Positions 7,397 to 40,399 of a DNA stretch of 64,000 bases are shown in pieces. Every line of letters begins with the position of its first letter. Within the stretch, counting starts at the first letter, position 1. This stretch comes from a gamma proteobacterium HTCC2207. GTDB taxonomy: Bacteria; Pseudomonadota; Gammaproteobacteria; Pseudomonadales; Porticoccaceae. A program made the translations under genes and the position numbers. The stretch covers positions 106,243 to 170,242 of the forward strand of contig CAJJDA010000010.1 in the NCBI GenBank assembly GCA_905182855.1. Reading direction: 5' to 3'. The notes below the pieces were generated by a model that saw only the letters and a program-made list of their open reading frames with translations, was not told the origin of the DNA and did not search any database.

Positions 7397-8620
7397 ATGA
7401 ATACTGAAATTATTATTGGTGTCGGCATGTTTACCACAGTGATACTGGCACTCGTTGCTTTTATTCTGGCGGCACGCAGCAGGTTGGTTTCTGCGGGCAA
7501 TGTCAATATCGAGATCAATGGCGAAAAAACCATCACCGTACCCGCTGGCGATAAGCTGCTTCAGACGCTGTCTAATGCTGGTCTGTTTTTGCCTTCAGCC
7601 TGCGGCGGTGGTGGCAGTTGTGCACAGTGTAAATGCGTCATTACAGAAGGCGGCGGTTCCATGCTGCCGACTGAGGAAGGCCACTTTAATCGTCGTGAGG
7701 CAGCCGAAGGTTGGAGGCTATCTTGTCAGACAGCGGTTAAACAGGACATGAAAGTCCAGGTGCCAGAAGAGGTCTTTGGTGTTGAGCGCTGGGAATGTGT
7801 CGTTGAGTCCAACGCCAACGTGGCAACGTTCATTAAAGAGCTGACACTGAGCCTGCCAAAGGGCCAAGATGTTAACTTCCGCGCTGGTGGTTATGTGCAG
7901 CTAGAATGTCCGCCACACCATATCAAGTACGCCGATTTTGATATCGATGCAGAATATCGTGGGGATTGGGAGCGGTTCAATTTCTTTAAGCATGAGTCGA
8001 CAGTTGACGAGACCGTTATTCGAGCCTACTCAATGGCTAACTACCCCGACGAGAAAGGTCAGGTTAGGTTTAACATTCGCATTGCCACGCCACCGCCGGG
8101 GTCAACCGGAATTGTGCCGGGCCAGATGTCGTCCTATGTGTTCAGCCTTAAGGCCGGTGACAAGATTTCTGTGTACGGTCCGTTTGGTGAATTCTTTGCC
8201 AAAGACACCGACGCCGAGATGGTATTTATTGGCGGCGGCGCTGGTATGGCACCGATGCGATCACATATTTTTGATCAGCTCAAGCGCCTTAAATCAGACC
8301 GAAAAATTAGTTTTTGGTATGGCGCTCGCTCGTTGCGAGAGTGTTTTTACGACGAAGACTATGACATGCTAGCCAAAGAAAATGATAACTTTGACTGGCA
8401 TCTCGCACTTTCAGATCCTCAGCCTGAAGATAATTGGGATGGTCTGACCGGATTTATCCATAATGTTTTATACGAGCAATACCTGAAAGATCATGAGGCA
8501 CCTGAAGACTGTGAGTTTTACATGTGCGGTCCGCCAATGATGAACGCGGCGGTGGTCAAGTTGCTAGTAGATTTGGGTGTAGAGCAGGAGAACATTTTCC
8601 TTGATGATTTTGGCGGGTAA
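7397..8620 (+). CDS. nqrF: Na+-translocating NADH-quinone reductase subunit F
   Basis: 2Fe-2S motif [25 protein letters not shown]-terminus IFLDDFGG. Confidence 0.96.
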
Positions 8621-22813: not shown

Positions 22814-22834
22814 TCTTTAGCTGTTGTACTCGTT

Positions 22835-24094: not shown

Positions 24095-24274
24095 ACATTG
24101 AGTCTAGCAGGCGATTGGTAAACCTGCCGAAAAACAGCGTGCCGATTGCATTTGAGGGTCCGTTTGTGTACAGTTGCGACGCTTAAAATCCGGCTAAAGA
24201 AGCCACCATTGCGGTGTTATAAAAGTACTCTGGTGGGCCTTCTCGGTGAATAAAGCACGATAAGTTAGCAACAC

Positions 24275-24365
24275 GGTGAGGTGTCCGAGTGGCTTAAGGA
24301 GCACGCCTGGAAAGTGTGTAAGCGTTTATAGCGTTTCGAGGGTTCGAATCCCTCTCTCACCGCCA
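24275..24365 (+). tRNA. tRNA-Ser(GGA), including encoded CCA
   Basis: Acceptor GGTGAGG/TCTCACC, anticodon stem-loop CACGC-CTGGAAA-GTGTG (anticodon GGA), long variable arm, T arm GAGGGTTCGAATCCCTC, 3' GCCA. Confidence 0.95.
24346..24363 (+). repeat. Direct repeat copy 1 (att-like, inside tRNA-Ser)
   Basis: GAATCCCTCTCTCACCGC. Confidence 0.8.
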
Positions 24366-24542
24366 AGATCATAACCCTTTGTTTTTGCTGAAGTTTGTGC
24401 TACCTTGCGACTCTCAGGCACAATTTTGGCACACCCAGGAGGGGGGGTGACAGGTTGATGTTCTACAATCCTGTAAAAAAACCAATTCCCAGATGCGCTG
24501 ACCCTATGCCATGGGTACCATCGCTTTCTTTAGAAGATACTC

Positions 24543-24719
24543 ATGCTGTTACCTAGCATTAAAGAGCTTGTGATTGGCTTTAAAACCGGTCGAAAAGTCG
24601 CTTATCTAGAAACATCTAATGGTTTGTTTGTTGAAGGTGTTGGCCAGCCACACAAAGATGAAGTTCTGAAGTTACCAGAGGATGCTGAGTTTAAATCTAG
24701 TTCCATTGATAATCCCTAA
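24543..24719 (+). CDS. Small hypothetical ORF (58 aa)
   Basis: Direct translation MLLPSIKELVIGFKTGRKVAYLETSNGLFVEGVGQPHKDEVLKLPEDAEFKSSSIDNP*; no family recognised. Confidence 0.3.
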   Translation: MLLPSIKELVIGFKTGRKVAYLETSNGLFVEGVGQPHKDEVLKLPEDAEFKSSSIDNP

Positions 24720-24923
24720 GTTATATCACTTCCAACGCGGACCACTGCATCTTTCAGGTTCCAGATGACTTGGCTGGTGTTTTATGCAAGCGCAGCTTTC
24801 ACGGTCCCATCCAGTTACCATGATTCACCACAAAATGATCACTAATCTAATATAAATAGACCCAAAGGTAAGTCAGGTGCAGACTGAATGCAGCAAAGAA
24901 TCCCCAAAGTATTAACAGCATCG

Positions 24924-25331
24924 CTACTCTTTAGAAAATTTAATTGCACGCCCATTTCCGGTCATTGTTCCCCAACTCGTGAACGTAATGGTCGGAGCCA
25001 CGTATCTGGTGAAAATGACCGCATCCGCGCCTAGTTTTGCCGCCTCGTTTCGGAGTCTCCCGTCAATATCTTCCCTCGTCGGATCTTTATTAAATATGGT
25101 AAGTTTGCTCGCTGATACATTGATTTCACCCAGAGTAGTATAGGGGCGATCTGTGATATCGTTTTCAGTAACTATTATTTCATTGGTATTTGAGATTGTT
25201 GTGACCTCGGGCGTTACGCCATCAACTGTCTGAATCGTTGCTGACGTTCTAGTCCCGTCCTGACCGAATTGCGTCGATGCGCAACCTGAAAGAGTTAGAA
25301 CCGCGATACTGATAATCAAAAGATTTCTCAT
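24924..25331 (-). CDS. Putative lipoprotein
   Basis: MRNLLIISIAVLTLSGCASTQFGQDG lipobox; ATG at 25331 gives a clean signal peptide versus the longer ORF start at 25400. Confidence 0.65.
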   Translation of the reverse strand: MRNLLIISIAVLTLSGCASTQFGQDGTRTSATIQTVDGVTPEVTTISNTNEIIVTENDITDRPYTTLGEINVSASKLTIFNKDPTREDIDGRLRNEAAKLGADAVIFTRYVAPTITFTSWGTMTGNGRAIKFSKE

Positions 25332-25771
25332 GACTTGTATTCCTCTAGGTAAATTTTCTTTGCAAAAAATAGCTGTAGTCTGTTGGATGATATTCGGCAA
25401 GGATAATATATTTAGCTATATCTTAAACGGTCGGATAGTTCCCTTCAGTTAATTATAAATATCCGTGAGCGGGTCAAAATAAAAAGTTAAAGGGTTTCTT
25501 ACTATTTTGCTTTAAAAATTGGGTATTTATTTTTTCTCATTAACTTTATGTATAAATGATTATTGCAGAACTAAGTCGTACTAAATTCCAGTTTCTCTAT
25601 CTTTCAGCAATCAAAGGATGCGATGAATATAGGTGACAAAAAACGAAATTACTGTATGTTGTATTCACAGTATTATAAATACACTGAATGTTATGTGAAT
25701 ATAGCCAAAATGTAATGAGCAATATGATACTCTTAACTCACTAGACAATACAATAAAAAGGAAGATCTAAA

Positions 25772-26167
25772 ATGCTAAGACCTAAAATTTTTTTAAAGTA
25801 TTTCTCTATTCTAGCATCCACGTTCATTTTCTCGGGATGCGCGACAATAACAAATGATGCATATATTCCAGTAGCACTTTCGTTTAGCGATGGAAGCGAT
25901 GGTAGCTGTAATCTTCGTAATAAACGAATGTCACTTGAAGCTAATATCCCGGGCACTCCAATGATAAGACGATCAGATGACGCGCTGACATATACCTGTA
26001 AAACAACTGATGGGCGGGAGGCCTTTGGCAGCATCGCGAGTACTATTGAAGCCGCAAAACTCGCAGGAAGTGTAGTATTTTTTGACCTGGGAATTACAGA
26101 TGCCATTACAGATAAGCACAGATTATATCCTTCGAATTTTGTTATTCCAATGTCACGTAATAAGTGA
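25772..26167 (+). CDS. Putative lipoprotein
   Basis: MLRPKIFLKYFSILASTFIFSGCATITNDAYIPVALSFSDGSDGSCNLRNKR; lipobox FSGC. Confidence 0.65.
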   Translation: MLRPKIFLKYFSILASTFIFSGCATITNDAYIPVALSFSDGSDGSCNLRNKRMSLEANIPGTPMIRRSDDALTYTCKTTDGREAFGSIASTIEAAKLAGSVVFFDLGITDAITDKHRLYPSNFVIPMSRNK

Positions 26168-26564
26168 GTAATTTGCGATAGCCGCTTTAAGAGATACGAT
26201 GGATAGGTTTCAGAACGCACTTGAAAATTGAAGTGATTGGAATATATGGGGATATCATGAACTTATGGTATCCCTATTTTCTCCTATAATAACAATCGCT
26301 TTTTTTGTTCAATACGTCGTTAGAGTGCGAAAAATACGCAGTATGGCAATTATGATACTGTACATTATCGGAATTATTCTTATATCGCTAGACGCTATAG
26401 CCAAGCAAGACCTGTAAGTGTGCCACTGGCACAATAAGAAATAATGTAAAATAAATTATATAGAGATATCAACAGGTTAGCTGACTTGAGTATAGCTATT
26501 AGTAATAGTATTATATAGAAGATAACCCCCTGATTTACAAGGATTTTCGGGGCAGAACTATAGT

Positions 26565-26582
26565 GAATCCCTCTCTCACCGC
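26565..26582 (+). repeat. Direct repeat copy 2 (att-like, distal)
   Basis: GAATCCCTCTCTCACCGC, identical 18 nt to tRNA-Ser 3' end. Confidence 0.8.
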
Positions 26583-26720
26583 TATACCTCTAAGCCTCAG
26601 TATATTCAATGGTTGTAGGGCGTTTTTGTAGCTGCTTTGTAGCAAAACTTTGTAGCAAAATTGTCCTCTATATCTCCCTTTTTAGTCAATCCACGTTTTT
26701 CTGTACCTACAAATCTTAAT

Positions 26721-26790
26721 AGGGGGGCGGGGGGCTGCTGACTGCTGCTGTATTAGCAGTAGTTCCTGCGTAGATATAAAGTAAACCAAA
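26721..26790 (+). repeat. Dispersed intergenic repeat, degenerate copy R0
   Basis: AGGGGGGCGGGGGGCTGCTGACTGCTGCTG...TTCCTGCGTAGATATAAAGTAAACCAAA resembles R1/R4. Confidence 0.45.
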
Positions 26791-26982
26791 TCTACAGTCC
26801 TTGCCCCCGATATCGTCTTTATTGCAATAAAGATACCCATATTTACGCATTTACCCCATGATAAAATACAGCGATAATGGTGCCCCAGTGTCGGTCAAAC
26901 TGTACCTACGTTTAGTTCGGACATCCGTAGAAAACCCTAAATTACAGATGAAAAAAAACTAGGTTCTGCCTAGGAGACGGAA

Positions 26983-28339
26983 ATGCCTGCGAGTAACAAC
27001 AACCCGATTATCAAGTTTTTAAAGGCGGCCTCTAATATTGAAGCTCAGGAAGTAAAAGCCGTCGCAGGTTCATTTATGTTTGTGGTTGTGTTGATGTCGG
27101 CCTATTACATTCTTCGACCAGTACGCGACGCCATGGCTAGTGATTGGACAGATGCAGAGGTGAGTTGGTTATGGACGCTTAACTTTTTTATCAGTACCGC
27201 AGTGGTTGCTGTTTATGGCATTGCCGTTTCACGGTTTCGGTTTTCGTCTATTGGTACCGACTATGTACGGTATTTTTGCACTGACATTTGTGGTTTTTTA
27301 TGGGCTGGTATCGACCTCTACTGATCGGACATTGATTGATAAATCATTTTATGTATGGGTTAGTGTCTTTAGCCTTTTTCATATTTCCGTCTTTTGGAGC
27401 TTTATGTCGGACCTGTTCAACAAAGAACAGGCGGGCAGGCTTTTCAGCATTATTGCCGCTGGGGCCAGTGTCGGCGGTCTTATTGGTCCGTCTATACCGT
27501 CATTTTTCTCAGCATCGCTGGGCACCGACAATTTAATGTTAATCGCTAGCCTGATGCTGCTGATCCCCATACCGATTATCTTTTATTTACAATCATTGAA
27601 ATCCACTGACCTACAGAATAAAGATTTGGAGTTAACCTCTCCCAGCGAGCCAATTGGTGGTAACCCGTTTGTGGGCTTCAAGATGTTCTTCTCAAACCCC
27701 TATTTACTGGCTATAGGCTTGTTTATTTTTCTTTATACCGGCGTTAGTTCTTTTGTCTATTTCGAATTAAAGAATCTACTGAGCGAACTGAGTCGGGCAG
27801 AGCGGACGGCGGTGTGGGCGCAAATGGATCTAGCAGTAAATGTACTATCAATCGCAACGGGGTTATTTGTAACGAGCCGCATTGTCGTAAAATTTGGAAT
27901 GGCGATGACTATTGCGCTGGTTCCTGTAATGATCTGTATTGGTTTGCTGGTGCTGGCTATTTCACCATTTTTAGGTACCGTTGTGGTCTTGCAGGTAATA
28001 CGACGCGCAGGTAACTACTCAGTCACGCGGCCTGCCCGCGAAATGCTGTTTACACGAGTTGACCGCGAAACCCGCTTTAAGGCCAAGCCTGTGATCGACA
28101 TTGTCGCATATCGTGGCGGAGACATGCTGATGGCTTGGCTTTTTACTGGCCTGACGCAGGGCTTGGGCCTCGGTTTAGCGGCTGTCGCAATCGTTGGTGC
28201 TGGTATAGCAGCGCTTTGGTCACTAGTCGGCATCTATCTGGGTCGCTGTTTTGAGCGGGATGATACTGACATCGAGTTGTTGCGCGAGGTTGCACCGAAA
28301 GTTACAGGTGGGATAACGCAGAAGAATTTAACAGTATAG
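26983..28339 (+). CDS. MFS-type transporter (NTP/NDP exchange transporter-like), interrupted by one +1 frameshift at TTTT 27241-27244
   Basis: Two overlapping ORFs; removing one T joins ...VYGIAVSRFRF-RLLVPTMYGIFALTFVVFYG...; 12-TM-like hydrophobic protein with YYILRPVRDAMA and NKEQAGRLFSIIAAGASVGGLIGP. Confidence 0.75.
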
Positions 28340-28432
28340 AGGTCATATTTTTAGTATTACCAACAGGCTGTAATGCCGATTAATTTATTGGTGTTATATT
28401 GACAAAAATAAAATAGGTAACGGATTCAGACC

Positions 28433-29539
28433 ATGAAACATTTCTCTATTATTGCAATTTTGGCGCTTTCTATAGGCTGCATCTCTTTCGCTGTTGCAGG
28501 TCATCACTCTTACGCTGAGCATCAGCAGCCTCAATCCAGTCTGAAATACATTGAGTTTAGTCAACTTGGCGATCCTGCCGATGTACTTGAAGTAAAGTCA
28601 GAGAGTTTGCGCGCCCTGAAAAGTGGTGAAGTCAGAGTGAAAGTATTGGCCGCGCCGATTAACCCGTCAGACTTACTACAGATCGCAGGAAAATATGGCG
28701 TCGACCCAGAATTACCCTCCAGACCAGGTAGCGAAGGCATTGCTCGGGTGCTAGAGATATCTGCAGAAGTGAAGCACTTGGTCGTTGGGCAGTTGGTACT
28801 TCCTGTCGGTGGCGGAACCTGGAGTGAGGAAATCGTCGGTCCGGCATCCGCTTTTCTTCCCTTACCCAATCTCGGCCCGCTAGATTCTGACGTTATCGAG
28901 CAGCTTGCTATGTCGGCGGTTAACCCTGTGACTGCGTTACTTATGCTGACTTCTTTTGTCGAGCTTCAAGAAGGGCAATGGATTGTGCAAAGTGCGGCGA
29001 ATTCTGCAGTTGGCGGCTATGTTATCCAGCTGGCGAAACAGCGAGGTATTAAGACAGTGAATGTTGTGCGCCGCGAAGGGCTAGCCGAGGATTTGATGGC
29101 AAAGGGCGCTGATGTAGTGTTGATCGATGGGCCAGATCTTGCCGAGAATATTGCTAAGGCTACCGGCAGTGCGCCTATTGCTCTTGCGCTCGATCCAGTT
29201 GGTGGCGATACCTATATTCGGTTGGCAGATAGCCTCGGTTATGGCGGTACTCTGGTAGCCTATGGCGTTCTTTCAGGACAACCTGCAACATTGAATACAG
29301 GAAAGATTATTTTTAATGACATTAGGCTACGTGGCTTTTGGCTTTATAAGTGGTATCAGACGGCAACTATGCAGGATAAACAAGCTGCTTTTGGGCAAAT
29401 CGTTCCTTTGATCGCGAAGGGTGTTCTTAAGGCGAATGTTGACTCACGTTATACCGTTGATGAAATCGATCAGGCAGTCACTCGCGCTGCGCAACGTGGT
29501 AGGAATGGGAAGGTACTCATCGTGCCAAATGCGCAGTAA
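28433..29539 (+). CDS. Zinc-type/MDR-superfamily alcohol dehydrogenase (2-enoyl reductase-like) with N-terminal signal peptide
   Basis: MKHFSIIAILALSIGCISFAVAGHHSYAEH leader; then MDR domain VLAAPINPSDLLQIAGKYG, PGSEGIARVLE, NSAVGGYVIQLAKQRGIKTVNVVRRE. Confidence 0.85.
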   Translation: MKHFSIIAILALSIGCISFAVAGHHSYAEHQQPQSSLKYIEFSQLGDPADVLEVKSESLRALKSGEVRVKVLAAPINPSDLLQIAGKYGVDPELPSRPGSEGIARVLEISAEVKHLVVGQLVLPVGGGTWSEEIVGPASAFLPLPNLGPLDSDVIEQLAMSAVNPVTALLMLTSFVELQEGQWIVQSAANSAVGGYVIQLAKQRGIKTVNVVRREGLAEDLMAKGADVVLIDGPDLAENIAKATGSAPIALALDPVGGDTYIRLADSLGYGGTLVAYGVLSGQPATLNTGKIIFNDIRLRGFWLYKWYQTATMQDKQAAFGQIVPLIAKGVLKANVDSRYTVDEIDQAVTRAAQRGRNGKVLIVPNAQ

Positions 29540-29574
29540 TAACAGAGTTTGAGCTTTTTAATGGGGATACTCAA

Positions 29575-29868
29575 CAATAAAGATGCGCATGACAGCGGTG
29601 CATCCTCTTGGACTAATAACAATAAACGAGCGTTCGCCAATGACAAGGCTAACCATGTACCGTCCTGTGGCCGTGTGAACAGTTCTAAAGGCTCTACTAG
29701 GCCAAAGGACTTCCGGCGCAGAAGCAATGATGGCTAGGGTCTGGAGTACAAGATTGTTAGGTTCTGTGAGTATGTTGAGAAATACTATGCTGTGAAGGTT
29801 AGGTATGAGTTGTCTTTTGAAAGCAATAGTGCTGAGACCTTTGCTAGCTGTGGTGTAGCTATCTACGT
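29575..29868 (+). pseudogene. Truncated, nonsense-mutated copy of the secreted HNH-like nuclease gene at 33055
   Basis: KDAHDSGASSWTNNNKRAFANDKANHVPSCGRVNSSKGSTRPKDFRRRSNDG*GLEYKIVRFCEYVEKYYAVKVRYELSFES; TAG where the 33055 copy has AAG; no 5' end. Confidence 0.8.
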
Positions 29869-29870
29869 CA

Positions 29871-29927
29871 CGGGGCAGTCTGCTGAGTCCTTATGATTGT
29901 TACTGTACCTGCGTAGATACAAGATAG
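29871..29927 (+). repeat. Dispersed intergenic repeat, copy R1
   Basis: CGGGGCAGTCTGCTGAGTCCTTATGATTGTTACTGTACCTGCGTAGATACAAGATAG. Confidence 0.7.
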
Positions 29928-30063
29928 CTGATTAAAGCGTCAATATTTTGGTAGAATTTAACGCGAGGCTCTGAGTAGGTGTCGTGCAGTTATGGGTTGG
30001 TTTACTTGATGCTGCAACGCCAACTCACGATGCTAGATAACATGGGACGTTATTAGGTTTTAA

Positions 30064-31413
30064 GTGGTTACATCTTTTGGGTTGAGTAAAAGTATGAGGT
30101 TAGCGATGAATCATGTTATTCGATGTATTTTGATAGGTGGTATTTCAGTGCTGGCAAGCTACGGCGCATCCTCTGATGAAATGGCGTTAAAAGACTTAGT
30201 GGTGGTGCGGGCAGATCGGCTGCTTGATGTTGTCACGGGCGAGTTTGTAGACCAACCATTGGTATTTATTGAAGGAGATAGGATTGTTAAAGTAGTCTCT
30301 GGTGCAGCGGCAGCGCGCTTAGATATTATCCCTAGTGACGCTAAAGTGGTAGAGCTCCAAGGACAGACCCTACTGCCTGGTCTAATGGATATGCATGTGC
30401 ATCTGTCTTCTGCGTCTAAAGACATCTCTTTTTTAGAAGCACGGTTGCAATCAGTACCACGCAGAACAGTTAATGCAGTTAAAAATGCAAAAGCAACGTT
30501 GTTGGCTGGATTTACTTCGGTGCGTAATGTTGGCGCCTCTGACTATACGGTGATCGCAGTGCGCGATGCGATCGATATCGGTGATGTTCCTGGGCCACGC
30601 ATTTGGGCTACAGGCCCATCGCTAGGTATCACCGGCGGCCATTGTGATGACAATTATTCGCCCCCAGAATTAAAACAAAAAAGCCAAGGCATTGCTGATG
30701 GCCCATGGGCCGTAAAAGCAAAGGTACGAGAAAATATAAAGTACGGCGCAAATGCCATTAAATTTTGTGCCACCGGCGGTGTGTTCTCTAGGGGCACTAA
30801 GGTTGGGGCGATTCAATACTCTCTAGAGGAGATGCAAGCGATTGTCGAGGAAAGCCACCGCAGGGACATGATCGTTGCAGCCCATGCACATGGTACCGAG
30901 GGTATTAAAACCGCAATAATTGCGGGAGTGGACAGCATAGAGCATGCCAGTATATTAGACGATGAAACTATTCTTCTGGCCAAAGAATACGGCACTTATT
31001 TGTCGATGGATATTTATAATACCGAATATACCTTCGCGTTTGGTAAAGCCAATGGCGTGCCCGAGGAAAACTTAAAGAAAGATGAAGCCATTGGCCAGGT
31101 TCAACGAGACAGTTTTACGGCCGCGGTTAAAGCGGGCGTGAACATGGTGTTTGGCAGCGACGCCGCTATTTATCCACATGGCGATAATGCTAAGCAATTT
31201 TCGCGGATGGTGACATATGGCATGACTGAGTTACAAGCTATTCAGGCTGCCACTGTTAATGCGGCTGCCATGATGAAGCGCAATGACATCGCGCAAATCA
31301 AAGCGGGATTTTTAGCCGACATTGTGGCGGTATCGGCTAATCCATTAGTGGATATTAGCGTGACTGAACGCGTAACTTTTGTGATGAAGGGCGGAGTGAT
31401 TTACAAACAATAA
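30064..31413 (+). CDS. Secreted/periplasmic amidohydrolase family protein (Xaa-Pro dipeptidase-like)
   Basis: LLPGLMDMHVHL (HxH), NAIKFCATGGV Lys region, AAHAHGTEGIKTAI, GVDSIEHAS, VFGSDAAIYPHGDN; N-terminal signal-like segment. Confidence 0.87.
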   Translation: MVTSFGLSKSMRLAMNHVIRCILIGGISVLASYGASSDEMALKDLVVVRADRLLDVVTGEFVDQPLVFIEGDRIVKVVSGAAAARLDIIPSDAKVVELQGQTLLPGLMDMHVHLSSASKDISFLEARLQSVPRRTVNAVKNAKATLLAGFTSVRNVGASDYTVIAVRDAIDIGDVPGPRIWATGPSLGITGGHCDDNYSPPELKQKSQGIADGPWAVKAKVRENIKYGANAIKFCATGGVFSRGTKVGAIQYSLEEMQAIVEESHRRDMIVAAHAHGTEGIKTAIIAGVDSIEHASILDDETILLAKEYGTYLSMDIYNTEYTFAFGKANGVPEENLKKDEAIGQVQRDSFTAAVKAGVNMVFGSDAAIYPHGDNAKQFSRMVTYGMTELQAIQAATVNAAAMMKRNDIAQIKAGFLADIVAVSANPLVDISVTERVTFVMKGGVIYKQ

Positions 31414-31513
31414 TTTGTTTCAGCCTAATATCCTTCCGATGTTTCTGCTCGACCTAAATCTCGGTAGAGCTTAACCTTTATAATTTTCCTGCCAGGTCTC
31501 AAGCATGACTTGC

Positions 31514-31610
31514 TTAGTCTCCAAATCAGCAGAGGCCGCGGGGGGAGGTTGCCGAGTCCTTATGATTGTTACTGTGCTTGCCTTGGTACAAACTAAGCCC
31601 ATTTCAAAAC
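31514..31610 (+). repeat. Dispersed intergenic repeat, copy R2
   Basis: TTAGTCTCCAAATCAGCAGAGGCCGCGGGGGGAGGTTGCCGAGTCCTTATGATTGTTACTGTGC...AACTAAGCCCATTTCAAAAC. Confidence 0.7.
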
Positions 31611-31735
31611 CTTACCTGCCCCATAACCCACCTGCGCAGCCCATCTAAGTTGCATAGCCATCGTTGGTCTGCGAAATTTAACCTTGACCATAGACCAAGC
31701 TAGTGAGAACCTAACATTAGAATTGCGAAATCATC

Positions 31736-32977
31736 ATGGGCCATATTATGACTGTCTCTAATACTTTTCGATTTATTGCGGCTACCCTCTGCCTGATCTT
31801 GTCGCTGCCGGCAATGGCTCAAGACCGGCCGTTTGCTCTCACGCATGCAAATCTATTCGATGGATCAAGAAATAAGATAATTAAAGACGTAACGGTGTTC
31901 GTAAGAGACGGATTGATAGAACGCATCATAACAGGTGAAGTAAATATTTCAGGCGACTACGAGGTTATCGACACAGAGGGAAACTACTTGATGCCGGGCA
32001 TGTTTGACGTGCATACCCACATCGATTCGGTTAATCGTGCCAGACAGGCTGTTGAGTCTGGCGTCACAACTGTTCGGAGTGCGAGTGTCACCTCATTTCA
32101 AGACGTAGCGTTACGTGAACTGGTTCGAGAGGGGAAAATTATCGGTCCTGAGTTCTTTGCTGCAGGCATTTATATTACACCAAATCTCGGCGACACTATT
32201 CTTTCAGACCCTAGGTTGGTGGCACTCTCTGATGGCGTTAATACGGATGACGAATTGCGGCTGCTGGTAAATGTTAATGTTGACCGTGGCGTTGACGTTA
32301 TCAAGACCCGTGGCACCCAACGTGCTGGCCTACCTGACACGGATCCACGACAGCAAGTTTACACTGAGCGTCAGCTGCGCGTAGTAGTAGAGGAGGCAAG
32401 CAAACACGGGTTACCCGTCTTAGTTCATGCGCACGGCGATGAAGGCGCTCGCGCCGCAGTGTTAGCCGGTGCAAGAAGCATTGAGCATGGCACCTATCTC
32501 AGCAACGAGACATTACGATTAATGAAAGCGCGAGGCACTTGGTTTGTGCCGACTTATGTGACGATGGATGCTATGAACGAACAACGTTATGGCTACGTGC
32601 TCCGCTTGCGGGGCAAGCATATGGTGCCGCAGCTGGAGCGAGCGATTCGGGAGGCGTATCGAATTGGCGTAAAAATCGCAACGGGCGCCGATCACTATTA
32701 CGAGGAGGATGCGATCAACAGAATATCGATCGAGGTACAGCGCTTTGTTGAATTCGGTATGAGTCATTTTGATGCTCTGAAAACGGCTACAGTGAATTCG
32801 GCTGAGTTACTTCAGATAGCGGATCGCACTGGCCGAATTAAAGAAGGCTTCGAGGCTGATATGATCCTGATACCGGGCAATCCCTTGACAAACATAGAAG
32901 CACTGCAAGACGTCTTGCTCGTGATGAGTAATGGTCGACTTGTTTTAAAACGCATACCATTCTCTGTGTCCGGTTGA
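31736..32977 (+). CDS. Secreted amidohydrolase family protein
   Basis: Signal peptide ...LPAMAQDRPFALTHANLFDGSRN; YLMPGMFDVHTHID, VLVHAHGDEGARAAVLAGARSIEHG, IATGADHYYEEDA. Confidence 0.87.
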   Translation: MGHIMTVSNTFRFIAATLCLILSLPAMAQDRPFALTHANLFDGSRNKIIKDVTVFVRDGLIERIITGEVNISGDYEVIDTEGNYLMPGMFDVHTHIDSVNRARQAVESGVTTVRSASVTSFQDVALRELVREGKIIGPEFFAAGIYITPNLGDTILSDPRLVALSDGVNTDDELRLLVNVNVDRGVDVIKTRGTQRAGLPDTDPRQQVYTERQLRVVVEEASKHGLPVLVHAHGDEGARAAVLAGARSIEHGTYLSNETLRLMKARGTWFVPTYVTMDAMNEQRYGYVLRLRGKHMVPQLERAIREAYRIGVKIATGADHYYEEDAINRISIEVQRFVEFGMSHFDALKTATVNSAELLQIADRTGRIKEGFEADMILIPGNPLTNIEALQDVLLVMSNGRLVLKRIPFSVSG

Positions 32978-33012
32978 GGCCTGCTTCCTGCCCCAGTTTG
33001 CCTCTGCTGACT

Positions 33013-33047
33013 TGATCTGAGATAGTAGATTGATTACTCAATAGGCT
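33013..33047 (+). repeat. 35-nt identical 5' leader repeat, copy 1 (upstream of HNH-like nuclease gene)
   Basis: TGATCTGAGATAGTAGATTGATTACTCAATAGGCT; also at 35462-35496. Confidence 0.85.
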
Positions 33048-33054
33048 CTGCTCT

Positions 33055-33600
33055 ATGAAATATATACTGATACTTGCGGCTTTGCTTAGCTATGGTACTT
33101 TAGCATCTGACTTTTATGACCATAAGGCATTAACTGAGAAAGGAGAAACATGGGCGCAGTTTGGGATTGGGTCTTTGATTACATCAGCTGTAGTTGCGGG
33201 TAGCTACAATCGCGCACAATTCTACTTCCAAAGCTACAAGCCAGACACCTCAATAGGCTTCTACACAAATCAAACGTGTTCCTCCATAAACATAGACCAC
33301 GTAGTTAGTCTAAAAGATGCGCATGACAGCGGTGCATCCTCTTGGAGTACTTACAAGAAACGAACCTTCGCCAACGACAAGGCTAACCATGTGCCTTCCT
33401 GTGGCCGTGTGAAAAGCTCTAAAGGCTCTGTCGGGCCAAAGGACTTTCTGCGCAGAAGCAATGACGGCAAGGGTCTGGAGTATAAGATTGTCAGGTTCTG
33501 TGAGTATGTTGAGAAGTACTATGCGGTGAAGTTGAAGTATGAGTTGTCTTTTGGGGCAAATAGCAAAGCAACTTTTCAAAGCTGTGATGTAGCTATTTAG
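33055..33600 (+). CDS. Secreted HNH/DUF1524-like endonuclease
   Basis: Signal peptide MKYILILAALLSYGTLASDF; IDHVVSLKDAHDSGASSW...FANDKANHVPSCGRVKSSKGSVGPKDFLRRSNDG matches the DH...ND..N/H pattern of GmrSD/DUF1524-type HNH nucleases. Confidence 0.7.
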   Translation: MKYILILAALLSYGTLASDFYDHKALTEKGETWAQFGIGSLITSAVVAGSYNRAQFYFQSYKPDTSIGFYTNQTCSSINIDHVVSLKDAHDSGASSWSTYKKRTFANDKANHVPSCGRVKSSKGSVGPKDFLRRSNDGKGLEYKIVRFCEYVEKYYAVKLKYELSFGANSKATFQSCDVAI

Positions 33601-33655
33601 GGGGCGGGGGAGTCTGCTGAGTCCTTGTTATTGTACCTGGGGAGATACTTTAGAG
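33601..33655 (+). repeat. Dispersed intergenic repeat, copy R3
   Basis: GGGGCGGGGGAGTCTGCTGAGTCCTTGTTATTGTACCTGGGGAGATACTTTAGAG. Confidence 0.65.
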
Positions 33656-33953
33656 AGCCACTATTACCTTTGCATGGATACATGGGCGTGGTCGAATATA
33701 TAGTTATTTGTGTCGCCGTATTTAGGAAGCTCCCATTTATGGCCTCAAACTCTACAGACTCGATATTTACGGAAGTGCTTTCCACTTACCGCTATTGATC
33801 TGCATGATGCGCAGACAGATTGTTGTAATCTTCTCAAAATCCATAAAAGATGCGGCATAGATTGTTTGCAGAGGGGAGCTGGTAAATAAAGTATTTTATA
33901 CACTACTATTTTTGGTACTATCAAAGGCCAATTTCGAGTAAAACAATAAACTG

Positions 33954-35324
33954 ATGATTTGTACCTCTGAATTTACTTTTATCCATCTCCATAAGACTGG
34001 TGGTCAGTCCATAAGCAATGCACTTTTACAGACTATTCCAGACGCGCGAGAGATCGGCTATCACCTTCCTTTAAAATACTTACCTAGTGACGCGACATCG
34101 CTGCCCGTTATTGGCGTCCTACGCAACCCATGGGATTGGTATGTCTCTTGGTACGCATTCAACAACCTGCATGGCGTAAAAAATCCTCTATTCAGCATTG
34201 TGTCGCGCGGAAAACAGGTTGGCTTCAATGACACAATCAAGAACCTCGTGGAATATACAGAGCAAACTCACTACAACGAAATCATGAAAGTTGCTCATAG
34301 ATCTTTGTTGCCTGACGACTTTGAAAACGATGGCGGTTCGGGGTTCAAAAAAAGCTGCTTAGATGAATTTTACTCCGCTTCAGATGGCTACTACAGCATG
34401 CTTGCTAATCGCATGTTTGGAGAAGACTTTAAAGGGGTACACCTCATCCAGTTTGAGAATCTTGAAAGTGAATTTATAAGTACTCTTAAGCAGCTTGGGA
34501 TAAAGCAGGTTACAGCGGTAGAGAATATATTAATCAACGAACCCAAGAAAAACAAATCTGCACGCGGACATTACTCTCAGTATTATAATGAAGATCTTAT
34601 TGAACTTATCAGCAGCAAAGAGCGACGTATTATTGAAGAGTTTGGATATGAGTTTGAGTCAAAAAAAGATTCGATACCGATTCGCCATCTTGAACCTGGC
34701 GAACGCGTAAGAAAGGTTGGAGGAACAGGAGGCAACTTTCTCAAATTGGGCAACGTGCGAGACATTGAGCCACTCAGGGAAAAAGTTTCCTGCCTTTCCG
34801 AACATGATTGGTCAAAGTCAGACAGACACACCCAATTTGACATCCATAAGGAAACGCAAAGCGTTCAGTTACTGGCAGATGACATGTCTCATACTTATCC
34901 TGTACCAACCGATTTCTACGATGATTTTGCTGATTTGATCAATCCCATTCTTCAGCAGCTATCTTCTCATTTTGGTGATAATGGTACTTTCATCAGGGTT
35001 CTGCTGGCCCGATTGAAAGGCAAGTCAGAGATTAAGCCACATGTTGATAAGGGCTACTCGCTGATCAACTGCAATAGATTGCATATTCCTTTAATTTCAA
35101 ATGTGGACGTAACCTTTTTTGTCGGGGGAGAATCTCGAAAAATGGGTGAGGGCGAAATTTGGGAAATCAACAATGCTAACGTTCATGCAGTAACAAATAA
35201 GTCTGACTTGGCGCGGGTACACCTTATTGTCGATTGGACGCCTACTGAAACGCTACTCAAAGAAAAAAAAGCCTTCAGGATGGATGTCTCGCGGCTTTAT
35301 CAAGCTGAGATGCGTGTAAGTTAG
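33954..35324 (+). CDS. Sulfotransferase domain fused to C-terminal aspartyl/asparaginyl beta-hydroxylase-like dioxygenase domain
   Basis: N-term FTFIHLHKTGGQSISNALLQTIPDAREIG (PAPS-binding type) and VLRNPWDWYVSWYAFNN; C-term LLARLKGKSEIKPHVDKGYSLINCNRLHIPLISN...WEINNANVHAVTNKSDLARVHLIVDWTP. Confidence 0.78.
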   Translation: MICTSEFTFIHLHKTGGQSISNALLQTIPDAREIGYHLPLKYLPSDATSLPVIGVLRNPWDWYVSWYAFNNLHGVKNPLFSIVSRGKQVGFNDTIKNLVEYTEQTHYNEIMKVAHRSLLPDDFENDGGSGFKKSCLDEFYSASDGYYSMLANRMFGEDFKGVHLIQFENLESEFISTLKQLGIKQVTAVENILINEPKKNKSARGHYSQYYNEDLIELISSKERRIIEEFGYEFESKKDSIPIRHLEPGERVRKVGGTGGNFLKLGNVRDIEPLREKVSCLSEHDWSKSDRHTQFDIHKETQSVQLLADDMSHTYPVPTDFYDDFADLINPILQQLSSHFGDNGTFIRVLLARLKGKSEIKPHVDKGYSLINCNRLHIPLISNVDVTFFVGGESRKMGEGEIWEINNANVHAVTNKSDLARVHLIVDWTPTETLLKEKKAFRMDVSRLYQAEMRVS

Positions 35325-35415
35325 TCTTCAGATCAGCAGGCCACGGGGGAGTCTGCTGCGTCCGTGTGATTGTTACTATATCTGGGTAGATACAAAGTAG
35401 ACCCATTTCAAAACT
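35321..35415 (+). repeat. Dispersed intergenic repeat, copy R4
   Basis: TTAGTCTTCAGATCAGCAGGCCACGGGGGAGTCTGCTGCGTCCGTGTGATTGTTACTATATCTGGGTAGATACAAAGTAGACCCATTTCAAAAC. Confidence 0.7.
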
Positions 35416-35461
35416 CAAAGAAGCCTTCCTAGCCACGCCCCATCGTTTGCCTCTTCCGACA

Positions 35462-35496
35462 TGATCTGAGATAGTAGATTGATTACTCAATAGGCT
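35462..35496 (+). repeat. 35-nt identical 5' leader repeat, copy 2 (upstream of Sel1 remnant)
   Basis: TGATCTGAGATAGTAGATTGATTACTCAATAGGCT. Confidence 0.85.
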
Positions 35497-35503
35497 TCTC
35501 ACC

Positions 35504-35765
35504 ATGAAATACATTCTGCTACTTACTGCGCTACTTAGTTATTGTTCTTTTTCATCTGACTTTGATGAGATGATGGAGCTGGCTGGCTAAACAAAAACAC
35601 ATAATTGCTCAGTACAACATAGGTGTTATGTATAACAGAGGAATCGGTATGCCAAAGGATGATGCCGAGACTGCTAGGTGTTACAGGAAGGCTGCTGACT
35701 ACTTAGAAGTTGATGCGGTAATTAGACCGCGCCAAGACTCGGGACCTGATGATCAAGGCGTTTAA
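35504..35765 (+). pseudogene. Degraded secreted Sel1-repeat protein gene
   Basis: MKYILLLTALLSYCSFSSDFDEMMELAG* then in another frame IIAQYNIGVMYNRGIGMPKDDAETARCYRKAADYLEVDAV, a Sel1 repeat consensus. Confidence 0.65.
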
Positions 35766-35896
35766 TAGACGACTTAGCTAAAATTTAGGGCCAAAAGTGA
35801 GGTAATGCAATGAGCGTAACTAATGCACAGGCCATGGACTTTAAAAACTCTTGTTAGGTGGCCAAACTCACTGTACCACTACAATTGGCGATGGTT

Positions 35897-37270
35897 CTAT
35901 TTATCGGTCTGCGCTTTTCTTTGGTGGAGCTCCATACCAATTGCTGTCCAGTTAGCAAAACCTTTCCAATAGTTGGGGTCCTTAGTGTCTGTTCGTGGCG
36001 TATCGTTTGAGATGATAGGTAATTTTAAGTAATCACCATATTTGTTTGAATTACCGAGCAGGTGCATTTCCAAAAACGCGGTTATAAAGTGTTGATTAAT
36101 GTTGTTTAGACGCCGATTATCCCAAGCAGGCTCCTGATAATGGGCGTACTCACGAGGATAGAGCGCTGCGAGAGGCGGAGCAGGATTAGTCGCAACCTCA
36201 TGTATGGCTCCTTGATAGACCAATAGATAACGTTCGGCATTTATCGCATGGTCAAATAACCACTGTGCGGCCGCAAAGCCGGTTGTTTGGTCCTGAGATC
36301 CGACGATAAAAAGACTAGGTACTATCAGATTTTTTATGCCTTCTTCGCTCCAGTATCCGGCAGGGGCGTATGGCGCGAATGCCACTATCGCCTTGATACG
36401 AGTGTCGAGCATCGCTTCGAATCTAGGGTCTCCCTCCTGCAGACTAGCGAGATGGCGACCGGGGACCACGCCTGAATAGTCTACCGCGGCTTGGCTTGCA
36501 CCAACGCCTGCCGCGCTCAATGTTCCATAGGTTCCCATAGAGTATCCGACTACGGCAGTGAGCTCTGCGTTGACCATACCTTGAAGAAATGAATCCGATT
36601 CTTCGCTCATGTTTGCTAGGCTGCTAATGACAAAGTTTATATCTCGAGGTCTGTGCACTAGGGTGCTACTGACCGATGCCGCATCGGCATGGGTGGATTC
36701 GGTGTGGTCGATGGCGGCCACCACATAGCCTTTCGAGGCTAGATTCTCTGCTAGCCAGGTCATCATAACCCTTGATCCGGAGTAGCCATGAGAGATTATG
36801 ACTAGGGGTAATGATTGACTGTTGGCATCTGGCACTGCGTTACGAGCTGCCCGCCCGCCAAAGTGGAACGGTAGATTAGGCCGATCGGGATTGCCCACGC
36901 CGTGACCAAGGACATCACTATAGGTGGTGATTTGGGTTTCGCCCGCTCGTAGTATCGCGGGATACCAGACTTCGACGGTCAGTTGGCGGTCATAGCGTGG
37001 GTTGGGCTGCTCCTCGCTATAGCTAAGAATGTCCAGTTGATTGAGGTTAACCAATTGCAGGGTGCGAACACCAACCTTAAGCTCGCCACGGGCTGCTAAC
37101 GCTGGTGCGTCTCCACGCGGATCACCATAAAAGAAGTCAGTTTCCTTAAGACTGTCACAGCCATGCTCAGTGTGGTCGCTGTCCGTTATATGGGGCGAGC
37201 CGCATTCATGAACGGCATGACTATTGAGTGACAGAAGTACAGTTATAAGTAATACAGCCGGTTTGCGCAC
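35897..37270 (-). CDS. Secreted alpha/beta hydrolase (dienelactone hydrolase / PAF-acetylhydrolase-like)
   Basis: Signal peptide; HGYSGSRVMMTWLAENLASKGYVVAAIDHTES; nucleophile elbow VVGYSMGTYGTLSAAG; HEVATNPAPP. Confidence 0.8.
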   Translation of the reverse strand: MRKPAVLLITVLLSLNSHAVHECGSPHITDSDHTEHGCDSLKETDFFYGDPRGDAPALAARGELKVGVRTLQLVNLNQLDILSYSEEQPNPRYDRQLTVEVWYPAILRAGETQITTYSDVLGHGVGNPDRPNLPFHFGGRAARNAVPDANSQSLPLVIISHGYSGSRVMMTWLAENLASKGYVVAAIDHTESTHADAASVSSTLVHRPRDINFVISSLANMSEESDSFLQGMVNAELTAVVGYSMGTYGTLSAAGVGASQAAVDYSGVVPGRHLASLQEGDPRFEAMLDTRIKAIVAFAPYAPAGYWSEEGIKNLIVPSLFIVGSQDQTTGFAAAQWLFDHAINAERYLLVYQGAIHEVATNPAPPLAALYPREYAHYQEPAWDNRRLNNINQHFITAFLEMHLLGNSNKYGDYLKLPIISNDTPRTDTKDPNYWKGFANWTAIGMELHQRKAQTDK

Positions 37271-37344
37271 GCTTAATCCTTAGAAGAGGTTACCTTGTGT
37301 AAGGTCTAGAATACCACCCGTGATGGAGGCTGACACGCGTTCAA

Positions 37345-38316
37345 TTAGAGGGTGGCTTTCTCTACGTGCTCTGCGGCCTGATTGAGATAGAAGTGTTTTC
37401 GCTGCTCATAGTCCAAAGGCTTATCTTTGCGGTGTTGGAATGGCGCAATAATTTGGCCGATATAGTCTTTGGGGTAATCTGGATTCAGGACCCCAATAAC
37501 ACCAACTTCTTTGTTTTGGGGTAAAAAGAAAGAGCCAAACACTAAATCCCAAATAATTAAAATGTTACCAAAGTTTTTGTCGGACTGATCAATCACTTTA
37601 GAATGATGCCAGCGGTGTAATTCTGTCATTGAAAACACATAGTTCAGCAGACCAATTTTGGTTCGGATGTTGGCATGTTGAAAAAACCCATGAACTGAAT
37701 TGGTAACTAAATATAACATCAAGACTGTTTCAGAAGGGTTGAGTAATATAAAGGGAATTAGTTCAGGTATCTGTAAATATAGTCGCTCTACAGGGTGGAA
37801 GCGGCCAGCGTTTAACCAATATAGCCGATTAGGACTATGGTGTACCGCATGAAACCGCCAGAGCCACTGTACGTTGTGCGATAGACGATGAAACCAATAA
37901 CGACCAAATTCGCATAGCACCAACATAAGCACCAACTGGCAAACAAGGTTCCAATGGTGTGGCCATATATGGTCACTGCCATAGCGCGCACCTAAAAAGC
38001 CAACCACAGGCATTAGGATAAACATATAAAGTGGTTTGACAAATTTTGTCATCATCGCTGTAACCGCAAGGTGGATAGTATCAGTCGTTAGATCACTATC
38101 GGTTTTGTTCCACGCATTGCGATAGGGCAGAATGAACTCCCAGATCCAGATCCAAAGCCCCGCAGCGATAGTCGCAATCACGGCTGAGGTCTCGGGTGTA
38201 TAGCTGTGACTTTGATTAAGCCAATAAGCGAGAGCTACGGCTCCAATTAAAGTCATCGGAAAAAGAATTGCCGCTAACATCGATTTCAAAAGTGCTGACC
38301 TGTCTAAGTAAATCAC
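37345..38316 (-). CDS. Sterol desaturase / fatty acid hydroxylase family membrane protein
   Basis: Histidine boxes HRLSHNVQWLWRFHAVHHSP and TELHRWHHSK. Confidence 0.88.
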   Translation of the reverse strand: MIYLDRSALLKSMLAAILFPMTLIGAVALAYWLNQSHSYTPETSAVIATIAAGLWIWIWEFILPYRNAWNKTDSDLTTDTIHLAVTAMMTKFVKPLYMFILMPVVGFLGARYGSDHIWPHHWNLVCQLVLMLVLCEFGRYWFHRLSHNVQWLWRFHAVHHSPNRLYWLNAGRFHPVERLYLQIPELIPFILLNPSETVLMLYLVTNSVHGFFQHANIRTKIGLLNYVFSMTELHRWHHSKVIDQSDKNFGNILIIWDLVFGSFFLPQNKEVGVIGVLNPDYPKDYIGQIIAPFQHRKDKPLDYEQRKHFYLNQAAEHVEKATL

Positions 38317-38609
38317 TTGACCCTAGGGGCTATTAGGGGCGTAGTCAATAATTAGCCTAAGTTAGTGGCAATATTTAATAACAGTCTTTCTAGGAACTGC
38401 ATTGAAGATGAGTATCCATTCGTGCTGTAAGCATTAAAAGTGCCGTGTCATTCCAACACGAGTGATAAATTACTAACCCCAATGCAAGTATGTTTTCTCT
38501 AATGGAGTTGAGTCAATAAATCTGGCCGTATGTTAGGGGCAGATATTGTCAGAACAGATGGCGCTAAATCAGCTTGTTGACACCCCAACTGGCACGGGGT
38601 GATGCCGAC

Positions 38610-39290
38610 CTAACCTAGATGGCCAACTTTTACATAGATGAGAGCACCCTCGTCTTGAGTGTATGGTGTGTGCTCGCTGAGATGCGGATTTCGCAGCCAT
38701 GATCCTTGGGGATAGCTTCCCTGTTCATCGTAAAATGTTCCTTGGAGTACCAAGATCTCTTCTCCGTTCCAGTGCTGGTGACGGGTGAACTGGGTATTTG
38801 GCGCCCACTTGACCAGAGCTACCTGTTCCCCTGCAAACTTATGTAAGGGCATAACACTCAGGCCTTCGACCATCCCAGGAAGCCATTGTTCGCTCTGGGT
38901 ATTAATTTGTATCTGTTCGTTGTCCTCTTCGGCGAATTGGTGCAGCTTGACAAAAATAGTTGCGCCTTCGGTGCCGATGATAGGTGTATGCGAGGTTCCC
39001 ACAGGGTTGCGGACATAGGTGCCTGTGGGATAACTGCCATGTTCATCGGCAAAGGTGCCTTTGAGGACTAAATATTCCTCACCACCATCATGGCTATGTG
39101 ACGAAAATGCGCTATTAGGCTGGTAACGCACAATGGAGGTTGCGCGCGCTACTTCGCCGCCGACACGATCAAGCATCATTCGTTCTACGCCAGGCATTGG
39201 CGATGTTAACCATTGGTACTCTTCGGGTCTTATTACGACTGATTCATCAAAGACGGCGTTATAACGCGTATTTTGCCTGAGGATATCCAT
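38610..39290 (-). CDS. Double cupin-domain protein (ChrR-like)
   Basis: Two tandem repeats: FSSHSHDGGEEYLVLKGTFADEHGSYPTGTYVRNPVGTSHTP and FTRHQHWNGEEILVLQGTFYDEQGSYPQGSWLRNPHLSEHTP. Confidence 0.85.
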   Translation of the reverse strand: MDILRQNTRYNAVFDESVVIRPEEYQWLTSPMPGVERMMLDRVGGEVARATSIVRYQPNSAFSSHSHDGGEEYLVLKGTFADEHGSYPTGTYVRNPVGTSHTPIIGTEGATIFVKLHQFAEEDNEQIQINTQSEQWLPGMVEGLSVMPLHKFAGEQVALVKWAPNTQFTRHQHWNGEEILVLQGTFYDEQGSYPQGSWLRNPHLSEHTPYTQDEGALIYVKVGHLG

Positions 39291-39598
39291 AGAGACAGGT
39301 CCTGCGTATTAGGTGTTGCTCATAGCATAGCCTGCAGTGATCAAAATTCAAGCCTGAGGGACACAAAAGTGATGTTTACGTGACTGTTTTTCCTCACTAG
39401 AGGGTCTCTCAGGTCAATAGTCTGAATGTAATAGGGAGCTAATGAACTACTTTCAAAGGAAATCAGTTATTTTTACCAACGATATTGGGTTCGGCACGCC
39501 TATTCGGCTATCATTGTGGTAGCTTTAACCGGCCCTGAGGTCAGATACATTGGTGCTTTTCGGGGCGGAATTTTGTTATAAACCTAGGGATTACATAT

Positions 39599-40399
39599 AT
39601 GTCAAATCATAGAGCGCTACAGATGTTCGGTCGTTCAGGCAACCCGGCGCTGAGCGCCGATACGTTCAGCAAGAGTGCCCAGTCTTCATCACCGACAGGT
39701 GGTATTCAATCAACGTCGTCACAGACCATGACGCTGCAGGGGACGGTGAACAAGACCGGTATCTTACTGGCATTGGTGGTGTTGTCAGCGTCCTGGACTT
39801 GGAATCTGTTCTTTGAAAGTGGTAACGCAGCCGCGGTGATGCCGCTTGCGATTGGTGGCGCGATCCTGGGCTTTATCTTTGCTCTGGTGACTATATTTAA
39901 AAAGCAGTGGTCGGGTATCACAGCACCGCTGTACGCCGTATCTGAGGGCCTATTTTTGGGCGCTATCTCGGGCATCTTCGAGATGCAATATCCGGGCATT
40001 GTGATTCAGGCGGTGGGATTAACGTTGGGTACGTTGGCGTCTTTATTGTTCCTTTATAAAACGGGCATCGTTAAACCCACAGAAAATTTTCGCTTGATGG
40101 TGACCTCGGCCACCATGGGAATTGGTGTGCTTTATTTGGTTAGTATGGTGATGAATATGTTCGGTTCTGGCGGTATAGGATTTATCCATTCAAACGGTTT
40201 ATTTGGTATTGGTTTCAGTCTGTTTGTCGTTGCCATTGCCGCGCTTAATTTAGTGTTAGATTTTGATTTTATTGAGCAGGGTTCAGAGATGGGCGCGCCC
40301 AAATATATGGAATGGTTCGGTGCTTTTTCTCTGATGGTGACGCTGATATGGCTCTATCTTGAAATGCTCAGGCTACTGGCTAAACTGAGAAGTCGCTGA
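39599..40399 (+). CDS. Bax inhibitor-1/YccA family membrane protein
   Basis: LYAVSEGLFLGAISGIFE..., LDFDFIEQGSEMGAPKYMEWFGAFSLMVTLIWLYLEMLRLL. Confidence 0.87.
   Translation: MSNHRALQMFGRSGNPALSADTFSKSAQSSSPTGGIQSTSSQTMTLQGTVNKTGILLALVVLSASWTWNLFFESGNAAAVMPLAIGGAILGFIFALVTIFKKQWSGITAPLYAVSEGLFLGAISGIFEMQYPGIVIQAVGLTLGTLASLLFLYKTGIVKPTENFRLMVTSATMGIGVLYLVSMVMNMFGSGGIGFIHSNGLFGIGFSLFVVAIAALNLVLDFDFIEQGSEMGAPKYMEWFGAFSLMVTLIWLYLEMLRLLAKLRSR

What the first reader, a model, noticed from the sequence alone, without database searches (positions are those of the whole stretch)
33954..35324. Sulfotransferase fused to an Asp/Asn beta-hydroxylase-like Fe(II)/2OG domain
The N-terminal half has PAPS-sulfotransferase motifs (HLHKTGGQSIS, VLRNPWDWYVSWY). 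The C-terminal half has an HxD...H-type dioxygenase core (KPHVDKGYS ... NVHAVTNKSDLARVHLIVDW). A single polypeptide coupling hydroxylation and sulfation suggests hydroxylate-then-sulfate tailoring of a peptide, lipid or small molecule, inside the accessory mosaic.
Basis: partly seen in the sequence, partly recalled or inferred. Interest (0 to 1): 0.6.

Follow-up and report, generated by a model that had tools for sequence, protein, structure and literature searches.

The report
Fused sulfotransferase and Fe(II)/2-oxoglutarate hydroxylase
One bacterial protein really does join a sulfate-adding enzyme to an oxygen-adding enzyme; the same fusion recurs in at least 20 other bacterial genomes with both active sites intact, so it is probably a rare two-step modifying enzyme whose natural target is still unknown.

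Summary
Observation confirmed. ORF 33954-35324 (+, 456 aa) has a PAPS-sulfotransferase domain (PF00685) followed by an Asp_Arg_Hydrox dioxygenase domain (PF05118), both above Pfam cut-offs. It is not a chimera: 20 other genomes carry the same full-length fusion at 36-63% identity. K14, H37, R57 and S65 of the sulfotransferase and H363-x-D365, H411 and R421 of the hydroxylase are invariant in all 21. In L054 and L056 the two activities are adjacent or overlapping genes in reversed order, and in Natronospirales they are neighbours, so the pairing is independent of the fusion. Other fusions carry TPRs (9 of 21) or a SecA-like SEC-C tail (7 of 21), absent here. TPR-type fusions sit beside TonB-dependent receptors, tryptophan-halogenase-like genes and more hydroxylases. 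The window's own genome also has a TonB receptor/TPR-sulfotransferase/sulfotransferase/hydroxylase locus. No NRPS condensation domain occurs in 16 host genomes. Best reading: a cytoplasmic bifunctional tailoring enzyme that hydroxylates and sulfates one substrate, more likely a polypeptide than a free small molecule. Order of action and substrate are inferred. New architecture of known domains.

The parts
33954..35324 (+). CDS, 456 aa, fused PAPS sulfotransferase - Fe(II)/2-oxoglutarate hydroxylase
33954..34658 (+). N-terminal sulfotransferase domain, residues 1-235 approx.
   Evidence: PF00685; AF2 model of this part pLDDT 87, SULT-like fold
33981..34013 (+). 5'-PAPS-binding motif IHLHKTGGQSI (res 10-20; K14 invariant in all 21 fusions)
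34062..34064 (+). H37 of GYHxP, aligned with the catalytic histidine of cytosolic SULTs; invariant in all fusions
34122..34154 (+). 3'-phosphate-binding motif RNPWDWYVSWY (R57, S65 invariant)
   Evidence: WDWYVSWY was one of the search patterns, so its apparent conservation is inflated
   Evidence: conserved in 20 other genomes
34728..35249 (+). C-terminal Asp_Arg_Hydrox double-stranded beta-helix dioxygenase domain, residues about 259-432
   Evidence: PF05118; foldseek 4p7w, AspH
35040..35048 (+). HxD iron ligands H363 and D365
   Evidence: H and D in 47 of 47 homologous domains
35184..35186 (+). distal iron ligand H411
   Evidence: 47 of 47
35214..35216 (+). R421, presumed 2-oxoglutarate-binding arginine
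   Evidence: 47 of 47; aligned to 4p7w
33605..33634 (+). copy of a 30-nt repeat upstream of the gene (flanking feature, relation to the enzyme unknown)
35344..35373 (+). copy of the same repeat just downstream of the gene

Best explanation
A soluble (no signal peptide seen by eye) bifunctional tailoring enzyme. The C-terminal Fe(II)/2-oxoglutarate domain oxidises a C-H bond to a C-OH. The N-terminal PAPS-dependent domain, with a SULT-type catalytic histidine, transfers a sulfuryl group to a hydroxyl. Both act on the same substrate, most simply sulfating the hydroxyl just made. The substrate is most likely a polypeptide reached before it leaves the cytoplasm. Shown here by sequence and model: both domains, complete catalytic sets, fusion conserved and not a chimera, recurring genetic pairing of the two activities. 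Inferred: both active (about 0.8), same substrate (about 0.65), hydroxylation before sulfation (about 0.45), polypeptide rather than free small molecule (about 0.5).
For: Catalytic residues invariant in 21 fusions. The pair is found fused in 21 genomes, as two genes in reversed order in L054 (hydroxylase stop and sulfotransferase start overlap as ATGA at 8573) and L056 (also reversed), and as neighbours in L050-L053. The sulfotransferase tree puts the fusions in one clade (98/93) next to the L050-L054/L056 sulfotransferases that lie beside hydroxylases; the Halieaceae, TPR-type and part of the SEC-C-type subgroups recur in the hydroxylase tree, as expected for co-inheritance. Fusion C-termini carry TPRs in 9 of 21 and SEC-C in 7 of 21; the SecA metal-binding tail binds SecB (PMC8076867, PMC4257090), and SecB is present in 14 of 15 host genomes. 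Eight of nine TPR-type loci lie within 8 kb of 1-3 tryptophan-halogenase-like genes and eight of nine beside a standalone hydroxylase of the same subfamily; such halogenase genes number only 1-6 per 3.4-4.8 Mb genome there. No NRPS condensation domain in 16 host genomes.
Against: No activity data. The window protein and its four Halieaceae-clade relatives lack the TPR/SEC-C tails and have no conserved tailoring or TonB-receptor neighbours. The neighbourhood cases are related by descent, so they are not independent counts. Standalone sulfotransferases and hydroxylases exist without a partner. The closest solved hydroxylase acts on free proline (4p7w). The closest solved sulfotransferases are small-molecule SULTs. 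An APS kinase above cut-off was not found in the window's own genome, which is only 76% complete; it is present in the four closest relatives.
Confidence: 0.5

Rival explanations
1. The enzyme hydroxylates and then sulfates a free amino acid, lipid or other small metabolite.
For: Closest solved hydroxylase is free-proline cis-4-hydroxylase; closest solved sulfotransferases are small-molecule SULTs. The Halieaceae-clade members stand alone without tails.
Against: Relatives carry TPR or SEC-C tails. Neighbouring genes are TonB receptors, a prolyl oligopeptidase-like gene and more tailoring enzymes, with no conserved small-molecule pathway and no NRPS condensation domain.
Confidence: 0.22
2. Two independent modifications: the hydroxylase acts on Asp/Asn/Pro and the sulfotransferase on a pre-existing Tyr/Ser/Thr hydroxyl of the same or another protein, fused only for co-recruitment.
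For: In many loci the two activities are separate genes with extra copies of each. Bacterial tyrosine sulfation of a secreted peptide has precedent in RaxST/RaxX (PMC6637879, abstract). Human AspH acts on protein residues (own knowledge).
Against: A fusion kept as a unit across families fits a shared reaction path slightly better.
Confidence: 0.2
3. One domain is a non-catalytic binding module (for example the sulfotransferase half serving only to recruit).
For: The sulfotransferase fold match is weak (TM 0.4-0.5) and the domain is short.
Against: Complete and invariant catalytic set in both halves; inactive domains usually lose these residues.
Confidence: 0.06
4. Assembly chimera of two neighbouring genes.
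For: The window is from an incomplete assembly (76% complete, 14 contigs), and the region is accessory.
Against: Twenty independently assembled genomes carry the same full-length fusion, including one on a 3.6 Mb contig (L043).
Confidence: 0.01

Closest known systems
PF05118 Asp_Arg_Hydrox: L-proline cis-4-hydroxylase (4p7w) and human AspH
   Same: DSBH fold; HxD...H...R aligned to 4p7w; RxH motif; foldseek best hits; AspH and several relatives here combine the domain with TPRs
   Different: This protein has an HxD triad, whereas AspH lacks the carboxylate ligand (own knowledge); fused to a sulfotransferase; substrate unknown
PAPS-dependent cytosolic sulfotransferases (PF00685; SULT family)
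   Same: 5'-PSB KTGG, catalytic His and 3'-PB RNP...S; weak fold match
   Different: About 235 aa, 10-16% identity to solved SULTs; C-terminally fused to a dioxygenase
SecA-like metal-binding (SEC-C) proteins such as YecA and YchJ (PMC8076867)
   Same: Seven relatives carry a SEC-C tail that passes Pfam
   Different: The window protein itself lacks it; the rest of the chain is unlike YecA or YchJ (not tested directly)
TonB-receptor-linked tryptophan halogenase clusters
   Same: TPR-type relatives are embedded in such clusters
   Different: The window gene is not; literature searches for the combination with a sulfotransferase found nothing
RaxST tyrosine sulfotransferase (PMC6637879, PMC4216712)
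   Same: Bacterial PAPS sulfotransferase acting on a secreted polypeptide, used as precedent only
   Different: No conserved small precursor ORF in the gaps of nine related loci; direct homology not tested

Membership tests
PF05118 Asp_Arg_Hydrox / Fe(II)-2OG dioxygenase | Pfam match above gathering score | tested here: met
   51.4 bits against 22.6; 21 of 21 fusions match
PF05118 Asp_Arg_Hydrox / Fe(II)-2OG dioxygenase | 2-His-1-carboxylate iron ligands and 2OG arginine | tested here: met
   H363, D365, H411, R421 invariant in 47 domains; aligned with 4p7w
PF05118 Asp_Arg_Hydrox / Fe(II)-2OG dioxygenase | DSBH fold | tested here: met
   AF2 model and foldseek
PF05118 Asp_Arg_Hydrox / Fe(II)-2OG dioxygenase | hydroxylation of an Asp/Asn residue | not testable with these tools
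   needs an assay; nearest solved structure is a proline hydroxylase
PAPS sulfotransferase (PF00685) | Pfam match above gathering score | tested here: met
   25.2 bits against 22; 16 of 21 fusions match at E 0.01
PAPS sulfotransferase (PF00685) | 5'-PSB lysine, catalytic His, 3'-PB Arg and Ser | tested here: met
   K14, H37, R57, S65 invariant in fusions
PAPS sulfotransferase (PF00685) | sulfotransferase fold | tested here: inconclusive
   best foldseek hits are all sulfotransferases but E 8e-4 and TM 0.4-0.5
PAPS sulfotransferase (PF00685) | PAPS supply in the host | tested here: inconclusive
   APS kinase above cut-off in 9 of 10 host genomes (one of these, G140, only marginally) but not in the window's own 76% complete genome
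SEC-C / SecB-interacting proteins | SEC-C motif on this protein | tested here: not met
   absent in the window protein; present in 7 of 20 relatives
RiPP tailoring enzyme | nearby precursor peptide gene | tested here: inconclusive
   no conserved small ORF in gaps of nine TPR-type loci; not tested around the window gene or at a distance

The most novel reading that the evidence does not exclude
These fusions, and the halogenase, hydroxylase and sulfotransferase genes around their relatives, modify outer-membrane proteins (foremost TonB-dependent receptors) in the cytoplasm before Sec export, recruited through TPRs or a SecB-binding SecA-like tail: an undescribed bacterial system of hydroxylated and sulfated outer-membrane receptors.
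Probability: 0.12. Interest if true: 0.85.

Novelty: new variant of a known kind. Interest (0 to 1): 0.5.

Why it matters
A single chain that can make a hydroxyl and then sulfate it would be a compact two-step tailoring catalyst, and no such fusion was found in the open-access papers searched. Its relatives tie together four observations that are usually seen apart: TonB receptors, tryptophan-halogenase-like flavoproteins of unknown substrate, orphan Asp/Asn hydroxylases and TPR-sulfotransferases. If they share one substrate, the function of those orphan halogenase and hydroxylase genes becomes testable by mass spectrometry.

Tried and rejected
Chimera (rejected: 20 further genomes). Phage origin: phages give only a 26% hydroxylase match and IMG/VR only distant sulfotransferase matches over the N-terminal half; no sign that the fusion is phage-borne. 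RiPP precursor search in intergenic gaps of nine TPR-type loci: no conserved small ORF; the only matches look like the antisense of TonB-receptor N-termini or of neighbouring genes. Integron cassette: the gene lies in a gene-plus-repeat array but no integron integrase was found in the 76% complete genome and the repeat does not read as attC by eye. NRPS product: no condensation domain in 16 genomes. Search of the neighbouring TonB receptors for a special conserved acceptor motif by eye: nothing distinctive. Literature: no paper holding sulfotransferase together with this hydroxylase type, or with TonB receptor and tryptophan halogenase.

Full report
Observation. ORF 33954-35324 (+) encodes 456 aa. 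Pfam finds Sulfotransfer_1 at residues 21-78 and Asp_Arg_Hydrox at 333-428, both above the curated cut-offs. The window lies in a 1.64 Mb, 76% complete genome (contig C10, 106243-170242). Composition falls to 42.5% GC over the gene against 49-50% in the outer parts of the window.

Real fusion. A scan of GTDB genomes returned 34 loci; 20 hold a single full-length fusion at 36-63% identity over residues 1-430 or more. Hosts named in the records include Halieaceae, Luminiphilus, Woeseiaceae and Colwellia, one on a 3.6 Mb contig. This excludes an assembly chimera. It is rare: within the window's family only its own genome of 112 held genomes gives a full-strength match, and in a sample of 369 genomes of the class only one other genome gave a fusion-like, partial hit and one gave the split pair, which is the L053 locus. 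The seeds of the search included WDWYVSWY, so conservation of that stretch is inflated by ascertainment.

Active sites. In 21 fusions K14, G17, Q18, H37, R57, N58, P59, S65, H363, D365, R375, H377, H411 and R421 are invariant. Across 47 hydroxylase domains, including standalone relatives, H363, D365, R375, H377, H411 and R421 are identical in all. H37 (GYHxP) aligns with KSHLP of cytosolic SULTs, whose His is the catalytic base (established knowledge). The hydroxylase half aligns with 4p7w, HxD to HRD, and H411 and R421 to its distal His and Arg. AlphaFold2: pLDDT 84, pTM 0.83 for the whole protein, 87 and 0.85 for the sulfotransferase half. Foldseek: 4p7w 5e-10 and AspH about 1e-6; SULT-like for the N-terminal half, weak (8e-4). 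Coordinates of the models were not available, so metal and cofactor geometry was not measured directly.

Linked activities. Apart from fusion, the pair occurs in reversed order as separate genes in L054 (Gammaproteobacteria), where the hydroxylase stop and sulfotransferase start overlap at 8573, and in L056 (Polyangia), and as neighbours in L050-L053. The sulfotransferase tree groups all fusions (98/93), with the L050-L054/L056 sulfotransferases as sister; the Halieaceae-clade five form a supported clade in both trees (100/99 and 97/97). In the hydroxylase tree the fusions as a whole are not resolved as one clade, so a single fusion event is supported by the sulfotransferase half only. The window's genome holds a second, unfused set outside the window: C10:3239-9904, TonB receptor, TPR-Sulfotransfer_3, small Sulfotransfer_2 and a convergent Asp_Arg_Hydrox; the same order occurs in G011 and G013.

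Appended modules and neighbours. TPRs end 9 of 21 fusions and a SEC-C motif 7 of 21; the five Halieaceae-clade proteins, the window's among them, have neither (sequences). The TPR-type loci (L032-L034, L037, L038, L040, L041, L043, L045) carry tryptophan-halogenase-like genes in 8 of 9, a standalone hydroxylase of the same subfamily in 8 of 9, a TonB receptor in 6 of 9 (three of the contigs end close by), and a second sulfotransferase-like gene in 6 of 9. Halogenase-family genes number 1-6 in the TPR-type genomes searched (3.4-4.8 Mb), so proximity is not expected by chance; but these loci share ancestry and count as few events. TonB receptors are commoner (16-53 per genome above 3 Mb), so their proximity alone is weaker. 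L042 (Colwellia) has a TonB receptor, TPR-sulfotransferase, fusion and another hydroxylase.

Interpretation. The SecA metal-binding tail binds SecB, and other proteins with such tails are suspected Sec accessory factors (PMC8076867; PMC4257090). SecB is found in 14 of 15 host genomes. With TPRs, TonB-receptor neighbours and no NRPS condensation domain, a polypeptide substrate is more likely than a free metabolite, though the nearest solved relatives act on small molecules. Hydroxylation followed by sulfation of the new hydroxyl is the simplest reason to fuse the two and remains inference. PAPS supply is clear in nearly all relatives searched but no APS kinase above cut-off was found in the incomplete window genome.

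Setting. In relative G028 the genes matching 21374-22813 and 39599-40399 of the window lie about 15 kb apart with none of the intervening window genes, so roughly 22.8-39.6 kb is a variable region. Within it the gene lies between copies of a 30-nt repeat. Mobility is likely, its mechanism unknown.

Verdict. Ordinary domains in an unreported (in the papers searched), conserved and rare combination, probably a bifunctional tailoring enzyme; substrate open.

Noticed in passing
window 29579-35568: A 30-nt repeat recurs at 29871, 31540, 33605 and 35344, each after a gene on the + strand, with partial copies (84% over 300 nt; 82% over 124 nt) of a small gene 33055-33600 that weakly resembles GmrSD_C/HNH (below cut-off). 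It looks like a gene-plus-repeat array; no integron integrase was found in the 76% complete genome.
   Followed up: partly
window 22814-39598: Variable region: in G028 the flanking genes are about 15 kb apart with entirely different content between.
   Followed up: partly
L080 3239-9904 (own genome C10, outside the window): TonB receptor, TPR-sulfotransferase, small sulfotransferase and convergent Asp_Arg_Hydrox gene; same order in G011 and G013.
   Followed up: partly
L032, L033, L034, L037, L038, L040, L043, L045: One to three tandem tryptophan-halogenase-like genes next to hydroxylases and TonB receptors; substrate unknown. The standalone hydroxylases (L043 7208-7888, L032 9875-10555) end in a Cys-rich tail CCCGxKLHPxTxCxPxxC.
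   Followed up: no
own genome C10:75137-79886: Tryptophan-halogenase-family matches, one split over two frames (75137-75637 and 75664-76485), possibly frameshifted.
   Followed up: no
L048 8001-9341: Fusion relative broken by a frame change and an in-frame stop; pseudogene or sequencing error.
   Followed up: no
L022-L026 (IMG/VR contigs): Distant relatives of the sulfotransferase half on viral contigs (25-32% identity).
   Followed up: no
own genome: No APS kinase above the Pfam cut-off although the four closest relatives with the fusion have one; the genome is 76% complete.
   Followed up: no
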